A stretch of 49,206 bases of DNA from Candidatus Peribacteraceae bacterium (GTDB taxonomy: Bacteria > Patescibacteriota > Gracilibacteria > Peribacterales > Peribacteraceae), in NCBI GenBank assembly GCA_028711345.1, contig JAQTSK010000008.1, forward strand, positions 1-49,206, written 5' to 3'. Positions 25,733 through 37,510 of this stretch are shown in pieces. Every line of letters begins with the position of its first letter. The stretch's first letter is position 1. Under the pieces are notes generated by a model that saw only the letters and a program-made list of their open reading frames with translations, was not told the origin of the DNA and did no database searches. The translations under genes were made by a program, and so were the position numbers.

Positions 25733-25788
25733 GATTAGGGGGGGAAAGGATACAAAGCCAATATTATATAATATTATGGATCTGTCAA
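25733..25788 (-). promoter_or_regulatory. Promoter with C-tract leader
   Basis: Minus strand: TTGACA, an AT-rich spacer with TATAAT (14 bases) or TAATAT (16 bases), then CCTTTCCCCCCC directly before TAATC-ATG. Confidence 0.55.
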
Positions 25789-25994
25789 CTGTGCGATAAA
25801 TCCGCAGTCGTTCGCTCAAACACCCCCCACTCCCTCATCATCGGATAGATCGCTTGCTTGTAGTCCCAGCCTTCCTGTCCGATGTACGTGACGGTCATCT
25901 TCATCGGTTGCGCCTTGGGACCCCGCTTCCGTGGCGAGCGCATGGCAGCACCCTCGCTGTCCGGCAATGCCGATGCTGGCAAGGGTGCGTCCAT
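25785..25994 (-). CDS. Small protein after the TOPRIM gene, 69 residues
   Basis: It starts 8 bases after the TOPRIM protein stop, which suggests one operon. The N-terminal half is Pro/Arg-rich (RSPRKRGPKAQP). The second half reads MTVTYIGQEGWDYKQAIYPMMREWGVF, with a compact aromatic pattern. No family recognised. It could be a small accessory replication factor. Confidence 0.45.
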   Translation of the reverse strand: MDAPLPASALPDSEGAAMRSPRKRGPKAQPMKMTVTYIGQEGWDYKQAIYPMMREWGVFERTTADLSHS

Positions 25995-26002
25995 GGTGGT
26001 GA

Positions 26003-27970
26003 TCAGGCGCTCGCGGGGGCAGATTCACTTGGAGCCACCACTCCAAGCCCTTTTGACGCTGTGCGCAGGAGCTGTTTGCATTCGTCACTCAGGAACCAAC
26101 GGAGATCGTCGGCGAGCCGGATATGCAACTGCGGCTCGAAGGTGCTTCCCTCAAATTCTTTGCAGATCCCCAGCACACACAATGTCTTCATCTCCTTCCG
26201 TGCCGTTTCATCCGAGCAGCCGAGGAACTCCTCGACCTTGTCGGTGCGCAGCTGACCGTTGGACTCAATGAGCTTGTGCATGAGCTTCGACCGGTGTCCG
26301 GGTGCGGAATCGAAGGCGAGCAGCACCACAAGGTGCATGTCCTCCTCGGCGATCTGCGTCCGTCCCATGGCGAGCGCGTGCCCTCTGGCGAGGTTGTAGA
26401 GGCACTGGTTTATGCGATCCGGCTTCTCGACCACTGGCACGGTGTAGACGTATTCCTTGCCCTCCGAGTCCATCCGGTCGCGGTGAATCTGCACCTGCCC
26501 GCGCAGCCGTGCGAGCAGCTTGGCGCAGCGTACGATGACCTTCAGGCAGTCTCTGGAATCCGCCTTCTTGTTCCACGTCATTCCGTCCCTATGCGCCTGC
26601 CACAGCGTACGGAGGAAGTCCTGCGTGACTTCCCGACAGGCAAGCTCTTTCAGCTTGTACGCCTCATCCTGCAATTGATCCGCAAGCTCTTCCTCGCTCT
26701 TGTCGCGTGTATGCAGTCCGAGGAAGAAGATGCGGGGTCCGAGTGTCCCCATCGCCCGCCAGACTCGCGGCTGGATGGGTGTCGATCCCGCGACGAACAT
26801 GAACAGGTAATCGCCGACCAGTTCCCGCCTCCCGTGGATGCCTGTATCCGTCGCAAACCCCTCTCCATCCAGCACCCGCGTCAAAATACCGAGGTTCTTG
26901 AGCAAGTCATCGTCACGGTTGGAGAATATGGTGGCAAGGTCGCGGAAGAGGAATGTCTTGTGGCGTATGCGCGGGAGCAGGTCTATTTCCGCCAGCTTCT
27001 CCTTGGCAACGTTCGATGCATTGGAGACGAACGAAGCAGGCGTGAATGAATCCGATGAATAGGTGATGCCGCTGATACTGTCAAAGCAGTTGATGACAAT
27101 GGTTTTACCGGCACTCGGCACGTCTACGAGCACGAGCGCGAAGCAGTTGGTGATGTCCTTGAGGAGGAGCTGGCAGGTGACGCTCAGCATCGCCTCGGCT
27201 GCGGAGAGGAGATCGGGGAAGTTCTTTTCGATCACTCCCCTCCACTCTGCGAACGTCCTCGCCTTGCGTGGGGCGACGATCTGCAAATTGCGCTTACTCG
27301 TCCATGCGCCGTCATTTGCGGGCTTGTAGGGCGTTTCCAGCGCGAAAAAGGCTGCTACAGGGTCAGTGCCTTCCGTCTTGGCACGTTGGAAGAAGTTCGT
27401 CACGTCGCCTCCCTCACCTAGAACAGAGGGAAGTGTGATGTATCGCAGGTCGATATCCGGTCGCTTATCGTAGATCAGTGCCAGCACCTTCTGCATTCCC
27501 TTCCTTCCCGCCTCATCCAGATCGAAGCAGACCGTGACGACCATATGCTGCGGAATGAACCCAAGCCACTCGTCGTGGAATGTCCCCGCACCCGCTGTGG
27601 ACGTGAAGGCGGGGATCTCGCAGGAGAGGAGCACGAGGGCATCCGGCTCACCTTCGCAAAGGACGATGCGCTCACAGCTCGGCAGCAGATACGGAAGCGG
27701 GTACAGCGTGGCAGTGGCACCCTTGGGATATACGAGGCTCTTGGGTTGTGATTCGGGTCCCTGTGGCGGTCTCTTTAGCTTGAGGAACAGAAGGTCGCCG
27801 TTTCGGTCGTATATGGGAAAGACGATCCAATCCTGTCCTTTGTACTTCATCCAGCCGATATTCAAAGCATCCTGAAAGTCCACGCTAATGCCTCGGTCGA
27901 TCAGGTACTGCTTCATCTCCGGCGGTAGTGCGGCTTTGTACTTCGCGATTTCTTCTTTCGTGGTCTTCAT
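26003..27970 (-). CDS. TOPRIM primase-helicase-like replication protein
   Basis: 655 residues. The N-terminal part (1-95) is primase-like (DRGISVDFQDALNIGWMKY). The TOPRIM domain has VLCEGEPDALVLL (Glu near residue 106) and VCFDLDEAGRKGM (Asp-x-Asp near 150-152), then GEGGDVTNFF. The second half (about 270-480) has LVDVPSAGKT (residues 282-290), a degenerate Walker A without the first Gly, and a long helical region. The C-terminus ends in a winged-helix-like segment (LRTDKVEEFLGCSDETARKEMK). It is probably a replication initiator/primase of the mobile element. The start overlaps the CHC2-like gene by ATGA coupling. Confidence 0.8.
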   Translation of the reverse strand: MKTTKEEIAKYKAALPPEMKQYLIDRGISVDFQDALNIGWMKYKGQDWIVFPIYDRNGDLLFLKLKRPPQGPESQPKSLVYPKGATATLYPLPYLLPSCERIVLCEGEPDALVLLSCEIPAFTSTAGAGTFHDEWLGFIPQHMVVTVCFDLDEAGRKGMQKVLALIYDKRPDIDLRYITLPSVLGEGGDVTNFFQRAKTEGTDPVAAFFALETPYKPANDGAWTSKRNLQIVAPRKARTFAEWRGVIEKNFPDLLSAAEAMLSVTCQLLLKDITNCFALVLVDVPSAGKTIVINCFDSISGITYSSDSFTPASFVSNASNVAKEKLAEIDLLPRIRHKTFLFRDLATIFSNRDDDLLKNLGILTRVLDGEGFATDTGIHGRRELVGDYLFMFVAGSTPIQPRVWRAMGTLGPRIFFLGLHTRDKSEEELADQLQDEAYKLKELACREVTQDFLRTLWQAHRDGMTWNKKADSRDCLKVIVRCAKLLARLRGQVQIHRDRMDSEGKEYVYTVPVVEKPDRINQCLYNLARGHALAMGRTQIAEEDMHLVVLLAFDSAPGHRSKLMHKLIESNGQLRTDKVEEFLGCSDETARKEMKTLCVLGICKEFEGSTFEPQLHIRLADDLRWFLSDECKQLLRTASKGLGVVAPSESAPASA

Positions 27971-35623: not shown

Positions 35624-35741
35624 TACTTAATGCTATGTCTAAATCCTTAGAAAATGAAGACCTCCAAGCAAATCTGACCCTGTGTGCTTGCTTCATTCGT
35701 GTGGTCGGGTTTATATTTATGAAGGTTATTCTTAACCCACT

Positions 35742-37490
35742 ATGAGTATGCAAACATCATTATTGTCCGCAGTCGCGGGATCGCACACCGGTACGGAGCA
35801 GAAGAAAATCCGCGTGGCGTTCTACATGCGCGTTTCTACTGCCGAGCAGGAACTCGAAGGCTACAGCCGTGAGTTTCAATTGCAGCAGCTGGGCGAGCAA
35901 GTGAAGCGAAAGGAGTACAAGGGATGGTATACGGACCCCAAGTGGCACTTCTTCGATGTGGGGTCCGGCGGGAAGCTGGAAGGTCGCCCCAAATTGCAGG
36001 TGCTCATGGACCTCGTAAAGGAAGGGGAGATTGATCTTGTGCTCGTATGGAAGATAGATCGTCTCTCACGGAATCTTTCCGACCTTTTGGAGCTCTTCGA
36101 GACAATGGACAGGAATGGCGTGGGGTTCGCTTCCATGAAGGAGGATCTGGACTTTACGGGAGCCATAGGGAAACTCATTTTCCAGATATTCGGGGCACTG
36201 GCGGAATTCGAGCGGGAGAATATCCGCATGCGTACAGAAGAAGGGCGCAAGCAATCAGCGAAGGCGGGCAACTATACAGGCGGGACAATTCCCTTTGGCT
36301 TTCTCGATGTGCCGAATGTCGGGGGAAAAGGGAAGAAACTACAACTGATTCCTCCGGAAGGTAAAATCGTGAAGCAGATATTCGAGTGGTTCGTTTTTGA
36401 AGACAAGAGTGCGCGGTGGATTGCTCAGGAGCTCAACCGGATCGGGGTCCCGAAAGGCAAAGCGAATAAGCGATCGAAGGACACGCTTTGGCATGAGTAC
36501 ACGGTTCGCAGCATGCTGGCATATGAGGAATATCGCGGCGTATTCATCACGAATCGCTTCAAGAAAATCAGCAGCACCCCGCGCAAGTACGAAGAACTGC
36601 CAAAGGACGAATGGATCATCACCCGCATTCCTCCGGTGATTGATGACATGCTCTTCTACATGGCACAGGAGAAGCTGACAAGGACGGCGAAGAAGCCCGG
36701 AAAGGGTGGAGGGAAGGAGCAGTACCTCCTGCGGGGAAAGCTGGTGGAAGTGCCCACGGGGCGTGGCTTCGTGGGTTATCTGTCCGCGAAGAATACGAAG
36801 AACTACCGTCGAAAGCAGTACAAGGAGGAGGGGGTGCATCACCCAAGCCTGAGCATTGCGGGGAAGCCGCTCGATGAATTCGTGTGGAAGCACATTGAAA
36901 AGGTGATTAATGATCCTGAGGGCTTTCTCAAGCTCCATAACAAGAAGGGTGTCAGGAAGGAGAGGGAGGAGGAACTCAGCCGCCAATTACGGACATACGA
37001 GGATGCTCTTTCGACAGTGAACGAAAAGATTGAGCGCGTGAAAAATGATTTCTACGAAGGGAAGATCGGTGAAGCGGAACGGGGAGAGTGGCTGGCGAAG
37101 TACGAAGACCAGCGCGAGGGAGCTTTTGAGGGCAAGAAAAAGGCAGAGCGCGAGTTGAGCCAGCTTGCCTCCTATACGATCGCCTGTGATCACCTGAGGG
37201 AGTTCTCCGCGAAGTTTGAGAAGGACATCACGTCATTTACCTTCGATCAGAAGCGCAAAATCGTGGATATGATCGTGGAGCGCGTCGAGATTTCCGAAGG
37301 ACAACCGAGGGAAGCAAATGTGCTCCTGAGGTTCGATCCGAAGGAAATTGCGAGCCGTATTCCGGGGATCGAACCCTCTTTGCTCAAACAGAAGCCAAAA
37401 AGAGGTGATTTGGTGTCTGTATTCAATACAACTGGGGCGAGCGATGGGAATCGAACCCACGACATCCAGGACCACAACCTGGCGCTCTAA
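35742..37490 (+). CDS. Large serine recombinase
   Basis: 582 residues. The resolvase domain has YMRVSTAEQ with catalytic Ser32, then [16 protein letters not shown] and the conserved [17 protein letters not shown] recombinase domain follows ([25 protein letters not shown]). The expected zinc-ribbon Cys are missing: the sequence has one Cys in all. A coiled-coil region (about 420-490) is followed by a C-terminal end formed by reading across the 3' end of tRNA-His ([18 protein letters not shown]). It would catalyse integration of the element. The start at 35742 was kept as the ATG nearest the domain. Confidence 0.93.
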
Positions 37491-37510
37491 CCAACTGAGC
37501 TACGCTCGCC
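37433..37510 (-). tRNA. tRNA-His(GTG), target of the element
   Basis: Minus strand with encoded CCA (37435-37433). G-1 pairs with C73. Acceptor GCGAGCG/CGCTCGC. The anticodon stem CCAGG/CCTGG has loop TTGTGGT and anticodon GTG. The T arm has GGTTCGATTCC. Its 3' half is also the antisense of the recombinase 3' end. Confidence 0.95.

What the first reader, a model, noticed from the sequence alone, without database searches (positions are those of the whole stretch)
25785..37510. Integrative element with a cargo of zinc-ribbon proteins
Between the split primase and the serine recombinase lie five proteins with the same CxxCG-x10-11-FCxxCG ribbon (protease fusion, PH-like, helical, span plus coiled-coil, multi-span), plus a sixth different ribbon protein. 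A shared tag on different effector domains, in one AT-rich block on two divergent strands, suggests a joint complex at the membrane. The ribbon could bind a common partner or form a scaffold, with the protease as output. I know of no described system with this composition; a defence or envelope-stress role is possible.
Basis: partly seen in the sequence, partly recalled or inferred. Interest (0 to 1): 0.7.

Follow-up and report, generated by a model that had tools for sequence, protein, structure and literature searches.

The report
Ribbon-tagged protease module on mobile island
A small mobile DNA island in a Peribacteria genome carries a recurring set of proteins that share one zinc-ribbon tag, including an outward-facing membrane protease; related sets sit in other genomes, sometimes beside known phage-defence genes, but what the set does has not been tested.

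Summary
Five unrelated proteins share a C4 zinc ribbon and are the only such ribbon hits in the 1.77 Mb genome. They form an AT-rich cassette on a 12.5 kb serine-recombinase island in the 3' end of tRNA-His. Empty sites in relatives, and a left end shared with sibling islands, put the island at about 24,902-37,437. The 'sixth ribbon protein' is island backbone: it also sits on a sibling island (G024) whose same slot holds a type III restriction system. The PH-like, helical and protease genes recur in the same order on an island of the same family in G280 (67%, 69-70% and 38% identity). Looser ribbon/protease/membrane clusters occur in other Patescibacteria, some beside SduA, Mrr or AbiE genes. 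Most likely the ribbons assemble a membrane complex that couples cytosolic parts to external proteolysis, for envelope protection or exclusion of phage and mobile DNA. The module is well supported; the joint complex is inferred; the defence role is suggestive only. Separately, the island ends suggest that integration swaps the recombinase's C-terminal tail.

The parts
24902..24980 (+). Left end of the element: core CTGGGG (24902-24907) and conserved end sequence, readable as GEWTEQGYYLFGVKLAMNFMGNNQ
   Evidence: Homologous left ends in G280 and G055, each directly after CTGGGG; empty site in G004
24998..25489 (-). Small multi-span protein inside the element, function unknown
   Evidence: ORF between the left end and the primase
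26003..27970 (-). Toprim plus helicase-like part of the element primase (start at 27970 chosen by the ATGA overlap)
   Evidence: PF13155 E 1.6e-6 and PHROG DNA primase; 61% identical to G280 over 410 aa
27967..28440 (-). N-terminal part of the split primase, overlapping the next ORF by ATGA (true start uncertain)
   Evidence: Sequence; no Pfam match
28516..28806 (-). DUF5659 protein, element backbone
   Evidence: PF18903 E 2e-6; 38% identical in G280
28842..29912 (-). Putative regulator with a weak C-terminal HTH; at the edge of the AT-rich block
   Evidence: Weak HTH_11 match, E 0.077; not homologous to the G280 protein in this position
29987..31414 (-). Zinc ribbon + RDD membrane domain + trypsin-like protease; start ATG one base after the stop of the upstream gene
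   Evidence: PF06271 E 1.8e-20, PF13365 E 4.6e-20; 38% identical in G280 with TNxHV, DVA and GNSGG motifs conserved; topology
31416..32105 (-). Possibly tandem PH-like protein with C-terminal zinc ribbon
   Evidence: 67% identical in G280; low-confidence model
32122..32802 (-). Helical protein with N-terminal zinc ribbon
   Evidence: PF13240; 69-70% identical in G280, distant homologue in G506
32836..33831 (+). Zinc ribbon + one span + coiled-coil-rich C-terminal region, predicted outside
   Evidence: PF13240; topology
33883..34017 (-). Remnant copy of the small ribbon gene
   Evidence: 120 nt at 93% identity plus 17 nt exact, direct repeats D1 and D6
34058..34693 (+). Zinc ribbon + multi-span membrane protein
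34735..35007 (-). Small zinc-ribbon protein, element backbone (the 'sixth ribbon')
   Evidence: 68% identical homologue in the G024 element
34988..35623 (-). Backbone protein of unknown function
   Evidence: 50% identical homologue in the G024 element
35742..37490 (+). Large serine recombinase; its last codons are read antisense through tRNA-His
   Evidence: PF00239 E 3.2e-37, PF07508; 78-79% identical in G024
37432..37437 (.). Right-end core CTGGGG at the 3' end of tRNA-His
37433..37509 (-). tRNA-His (GTG), integration target
   Evidence: ARAGORN and Rfam

Best explanation
The block is a horizontally moved cargo module on a tRNA-His-specific serine-recombinase island of Peribacteria. Its products carry a common cytosolic C4 zinc-ribbon tag on different bodies: an RDD-anchored protein whose trypsin/HtrA-like domain faces outward, a one-span protein, a multi-span protein, and two soluble proteins (one possibly PH-like, one helical). 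Most likely the ribbons act as docking tags that assemble these into one complex at the inner face of the membrane; the soluble proteins sense or transmit a signal, the membrane proteins couple it across the membrane, and the protease is the output on the envelope side. The most probable benefit is envelope protection, with exclusion of phage or other mobile DNA as the leading specific use. Shown: element, cassette unity, conservation, selection. Predicted: domains and topology. Inferred: complex formation, tag function, signalling and defence role.
For: All five PF13240 hits of the genome are here. Same three-gene order (protease, PH-like, helical) with divergent ribbon/membrane genes in G280, at 38, 67 and 69-70% identity, on an insertion whose left end matches the window's. 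The PH-like and helical bodies were found only together, in 2 of 277 class genomes. Purifying selection; AT-rich codon use in both copies. Looser clusters of ribbon-tagged membrane proteins with a protease: G285 (ribbon+span+trypsin), G036 (ribbon+RDD, Sel1+trypsin, ribbon+DUF6804), G506 (ribbon+RDD, M48, DUF6804, helical homologue), G490 (ribbon+span with HExxH). DUF6804 searched independently: 4 of 16 loci have a ribbon gene within 2 kb. Defence genes beside related clusters: SduA E 6e-131 in G036, Mrr_cat in G280, AbiEi/AbiEii in G459 and G420; type III R-M on the sibling element in G024.
Against: No interaction or functional data. Both monomer models are low confidence (pLDDT 52 and 56). 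No cassette protein matches a known defence protein beyond generic trypsin similarity. No defence gene lies beside the cassette in the window, and the sibling element in G055 carries a transporter-like protein and other cargo without convincing defence matches. Defence genes are common in these genomes (AbiEii alone about 1 per Mb), so neighbourhood is weak evidence. The one-span body has no counterpart in G280, and the multi-span body matches there only in the ribbon and weakly elsewhere.
Confidence: 0.4

Rival explanations
1. An envelope-maintenance or stress module, working like PSP or DegS-type systems: the ribbon proteins monitor the membrane and the protease removes damaged envelope proteins. 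Not defence.
For: HtrA-like protease; RDD and multi-span partners; ribbon domains occur in PSP-type operons (PMC11237479).
Against: No PspA, PspC, band-7 or PDZ domain. The cassette is rare and carried on a mobile island, unlike housekeeping functions.
Confidence: 0.27
2. A loose collection: zinc ribbons are a common accessory of bacterial membrane proteins, and the five genes were gathered in an AT-rich cargo slot without forming one machine.
For: Ribbon-membrane proteins are scattered singly through many Patescibacteria genomes. The cargo slot is rearranged. One-span and multi-span bodies are not or poorly conserved in G280.
Against: The three-gene core keeps order and strand in G280; the genome has no other PF13240 proteins; similar combinations recur in distant families.
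Confidence: 0.18
3. An element-serving function: surface or entry exclusion against related islands, or help in the island's own transfer or maintenance.
For: Carried on the island next to its replication and recombination genes; at least two copies on elements of one family.
Against: Siblings of the element in G024 and G055 lack it, so it is not needed for the element; similar clusters occur without this backbone.
Confidence: 0.1

Closest known systems
HtrA/DegS family serine proteases
   Same: Trypsin-like fold with His, Asp and Ser motifs; membrane-anchored; predicted extracytoplasmic
   Different: No PDZ domain; anchored by an RDD domain and tagged with a cytosolic zinc ribbon; far below the HtrA/DegS family cut-offs
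Ribbon-tagged membrane proteins such as TcaA/YvbJ of Bacillota (own knowledge)
   Same: N-terminal C4 ribbon, one span, extracytoplasmic region, as in 32836-33831
   Different: No TcaA-type domain matched in Pfam; here several ribbon proteins form a set with a protease
Phage-shock (PSP) operons with ribbon domains, e.g. ydjFGHL (PMC11237479)
   Same: Ribbon domains on membrane-associated partners in one operon
   Different: No PspA, PspC, band-7 or TPM domain found here; a protease is present
Trypsin-containing bacterial conflict systems (PMC7159879)
   Same: A trypsin-like peptidase with membrane partners and a proposed immunity role
   Different: No NTPase, vWA, NucA or effector-associated domain found in the cassette
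Genomic islands integrated at tRNA genes (PMC4383910, abstract)
   Same: tRNA target, recombinase beside the tRNA, variable cargo slot
   Different: Serine rather than tyrosine recombinase, very short core, and the recombinase gene end overlaps the attachment site

Membership tests
Integrative element at tRNA-His | Site-specific recombinase next to the target | tested here: met
   PF00239/PF07508 recombinase running into tRNA-His
Integrative element at tRNA-His | Empty site in relatives | tested here: met
   G004: PKD gene directly beside tRNA-His and HisRS; PKD, tRNA-His and HisRS also close together in others such as G005
Integrative element at tRNA-His | Matching ends | tested here: inconclusive
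   Six-base core CTGGGG at both ends and homologous left ends in G280 and G055; the core is too short to prove the crossover, and no repeat of 16 nt or more was found
Integrative element at tRNA-His | Excised circle | not testable with these tools
   Needs reads or PCR
HtrA/DegS proteases | Trypsin-like domain with catalytic triad motifs | tested here: met
   PF13365; TNxHV, DVA and GNSGG motifs shared with G280
HtrA/DegS proteases | C-terminal PDZ domain | tested here: not met
   The protein ends just after the protease domain; no PDZ match
HtrA/DegS proteases | Curated family cut-off | tested here: not met
   70.7 bits against 416.2 for degP_htrA_DO; 47.1 against 423 for DegS
RDD family | PF06271 domain above cut-off | tested here: met
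   74.1 bits against 24.1, E 1.8e-20
Known anti-phage systems (PADLOC 2.0) | Match to a system-specific protein model | tested here: not met
   Only generic trypsin similarity and sub-threshold hits
PSP systems | PspA or PspC domain | tested here: not met
   None matched in the cassette
TcaA/YvbJ | Family-specific extracytoplasmic domains | tested here: not met
   32836-33831 matches ribbon families only; the rest is at chance level
PH-domain proteins | PH fold | tested here: inconclusive
   Two strand-rich repeats each ending in a helix in a pLDDT 52 model; best hit tandem PH of Rtt106 at E 0.41

The most novel reading that the evidence does not exclude
A new kind of mobile envelope system in Patescibacteria, in which one small zinc ribbon is an interchangeable docking tag that assembles cytosolic sensors, membrane couplers and an outward-facing protease (trypsin, M48 or HExxH type in different versions) into one complex that protects the cell from phage or mobile DNA.
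Probability: 0.22. Interest if true: 0.8.

Novelty: new variant of a known kind. Interest (0 to 1): 0.5.

Why it matters
Patescibacteria have very small genomes, so a conserved multi-gene cargo that moves between them is probably useful. If the ribbon is a shared docking tag, the many ribbon-tagged membrane proteins of unknown function in bacteria would gain a testable role, and islands of this kind would be a place to look for envelope-level defences in a phylum whose phage biology is little known.

Tried and rejected
Relatives of the PH-like protein in plasmids, of the helical protein in phages, and of both in IMG/VR viral contigs: none. GTDB contig scan with the PH-like alignment: only G280, but that scan rests on two short peptide patterns. 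Plasmid search with the protease: only generic HtrA-like proteins, none covering 80% of it. Structure models: too weak for a fold claim. PDB sequence search with the PH-like alignment: none. Homology of the G285 PH-looking protein to the window's: only the ribbon aligned. Long direct repeats at the element ends: none of 16 nt or more. The sixth ribbon protein as part of the set: dropped, it is backbone. PADLOC 'RT-Protease' hits: trypsin-domain similarity only. A first selection comparison of the helical gene and primase in the wrong frame was redone. DUF6804 as a general marker of the system: rejected, most of its loci lack ribbons. G506 as a recombinase island: a recombinase-like C-terminal ORF was suspected but not confirmed by Pfam, so it is not claimed. 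Papers: nothing describing this set; DUF6804 does not occur in the library.
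Full report
WHAT IS THERE. The window is a whole contig (G000:C21) of a 1.77 Mb draft genome in 93 contigs. G280, a member of the same family that carries the same cassette, is a Candidatus Peribacter MAG, so the source belongs to the Peribacteria. Five ORFs between 29,987 and 34,693 carry the ribbon CxxCG-x8-9-FCxxCG. They are the only PF13240 matches in the genome at E 0.01. Their bodies are unrelated: RDD plus trypsin-like protease; a strand-rich, possibly tandem PH-like protein; a helical protein; a one-span protein; a multi-span protein. 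The block has 38-40% GC against about 53% outside, and GC3 of 0.32-0.37 against 0.67 for the recombinase and 0.73 for HisRS.

THE ELEMENT. The serine recombinase (35742-37490) ends antisense inside tRNA-His. In G004 the same neighbourhood (M24 peptidase, pilin, PKD protein, tRNA-His, HisRS, GyrB) has no insertion; other family members also keep PKD, tRNA-His and HisRS close together. In the window 12.5 kb lies between PKD and tRNA-His. The left end at 24,902 (CTGGGG followed by AATGGACTGAGCAAGGTTACTATTTG) matches the left end of the G280 insertion, which begins directly after zwf. In G028, of the same genus as G280, zwf is followed within 0.7 kb by tRNA-His and there is no insertion. The right boundary in G280 is off the contig, so its recombinase and its integration at tRNA-His are likely but not seen.

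BACKBONE AND SLOT. G024 has a 78-79% identical recombinase at tRNA-His, followed by homologues of orf 34988-35623 (50%) and of the small ribbon protein 34735-35007 (68%). Where the window has the ribbon cassette, G024 has HD-type proteins, an N-formylglutamate amidohydrolase-like protein (both named from sequence, not from a library) and a type III restriction-modification system. So the sixth ribbon protein is backbone, and the cassette occupies a variable slot. A remnant of the small ribbon gene at 33,883-34,017 (93% over 120 nt) shows rearrangement around the multi-span gene. G055 carries another element of the family with other cargo.

CONSERVATION OF THE CASSETTE. G280 has the protease, PH-like and helical genes in the same order and strand, at 38, 67 and 69-70% identity, next to divergent ribbon/membrane genes. 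The element primase (61%) and the DUF5659 protein (38%) are also shared. Nonsynonymous change is far below synonymous change for the PH-like (pN 0.19, pS 0.73) and helical (0.18, 0.87) genes; synonymous sites are near saturation, so this is qualitative. Among 277 class genomes the two bodies were found only in G000 and G280, each time together; other hits were mainly to the ribbon.

RELATED CLUSTERS. PF13240 scans of 288 class and 333 phylum genomes pointed to further clusters. G285: an XRE-like regulator, then five ribbon proteins including ribbon+span+trypsin, whose protease domain is 30% identical to the window's. G036: ribbon+RDD, other ribbon proteins, Sel1+trypsin and ribbon+DUF6804, between serine recombinases, one running into tRNA-Asn, with an SduA (Shedu) protein directly downstream. 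G506: DUF6804, M48 peptidase, ribbon+RDD and a distant homologue of the helical protein (profile comparison 97.3% with the ribbon; body alone E 6e-4 but only 28% probability). G490: DUF6804 plus a ribbon+span protein with an HExxH motif. These clusters were picked because they contain ribbons, so their recurrence is descriptive. The DUF6804 search was independent of ribbons: 4 of 16 loci (G346, G438, G490, G506) have a PF13240 match within 2 kb.

DEFENCE LINK. Known defence genes lie beside related clusters in G036 (SduA), G280 (Mrr_cat), and G459 and G420 (AbiEi/AbiEii). The window itself has none beside the cassette. AbiEii alone occurs about once per Mb in the phylum and I have no background for all defence families, so this is suggestive only.

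HOW IT MAY WORK. Hydrophobicity and flank charges place the ribbon of the protease inside and its catalytic domain outside after three spans, and the one-span protein likewise N-in. The helical protein has no span and the PH-like protein no convincing one. A shared tag on two soluble and three membrane proteins is most simply read as a docking device at the inner membrane face, with external proteolysis as output. None of this is tested. Published RDD work offers a transporter-type claim (PMC5996927, abstract; that it is a cation antiporter is my recollection) and a predicted intramembrane binding site facing the cytoplasm (PMC12419801); neither settles the role here.

RECOMBINASE TAIL. If the element is closed at CTGGGG, the recombinase frame continues without a stop from ...[10 protein letters not shown] into GEWTEQGYYLFGVKLAMNFMGNNQ at the other end. 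The same peptide-like end occurs in 15 of 74 family genomes; none of the copies inspected is joined to a recombinase. So integration may exchange a conserved C-terminal tail for a tRNA-antisense one. The alternative, that the conservation is of the attachment-site DNA, is not excluded (24 codons, pN 0.086 against pS 0.286).

VERDICT. A real, conserved, mobile multi-gene module with no described equivalent found in the searches made; joint complex inferred; defence function possible but unproven.

Noticed in passing
window 24902-24980 and 37300-37437: In the closed circle the recombinase ORF would run in frame into a conserved peptide (GEWTxQGYYLFGVKL..NFxGNNQ) encoded at the other element end, so integration would swap the enzyme's C-terminal tail for a tRNA-antisense tail.
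   Followed up: partly
G000:C36:39801-40888: Two more copies of the element-end sequence in the same genome, about 1 kb apart, possibly remnants of other insertions.
   Followed up: no
window 33883-34017 and 34742-34887: Partial duplicate of the small ribbon gene on the other side of the multi-span gene, a sign of recombination in the cargo slot.
   Followed up: partly
L041:7917-8357, L045:10592-11002, L068:6127-6438, L073:3613-4029: DUF6804, a small membrane family absent from the paper library, recurs in ribbon clusters and is joined to a ribbon in two of them.
   Followed up: partly
L045:11054-12136: A strong SduA (Shedu) protein directly downstream of a ribbon cluster between serine recombinases in a genome of the same family.
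   Followed up: partly
L036:8055-12010: Type III restriction-modification genes in the cargo slot of the sibling tRNA-His element.
   Followed up: yes
window 27967-27972: The two primase ORFs overlap by ATGA, so the primase looks split but translationally coupled; the G280 protein matches only the helicase-like part.
   Followed up: partly
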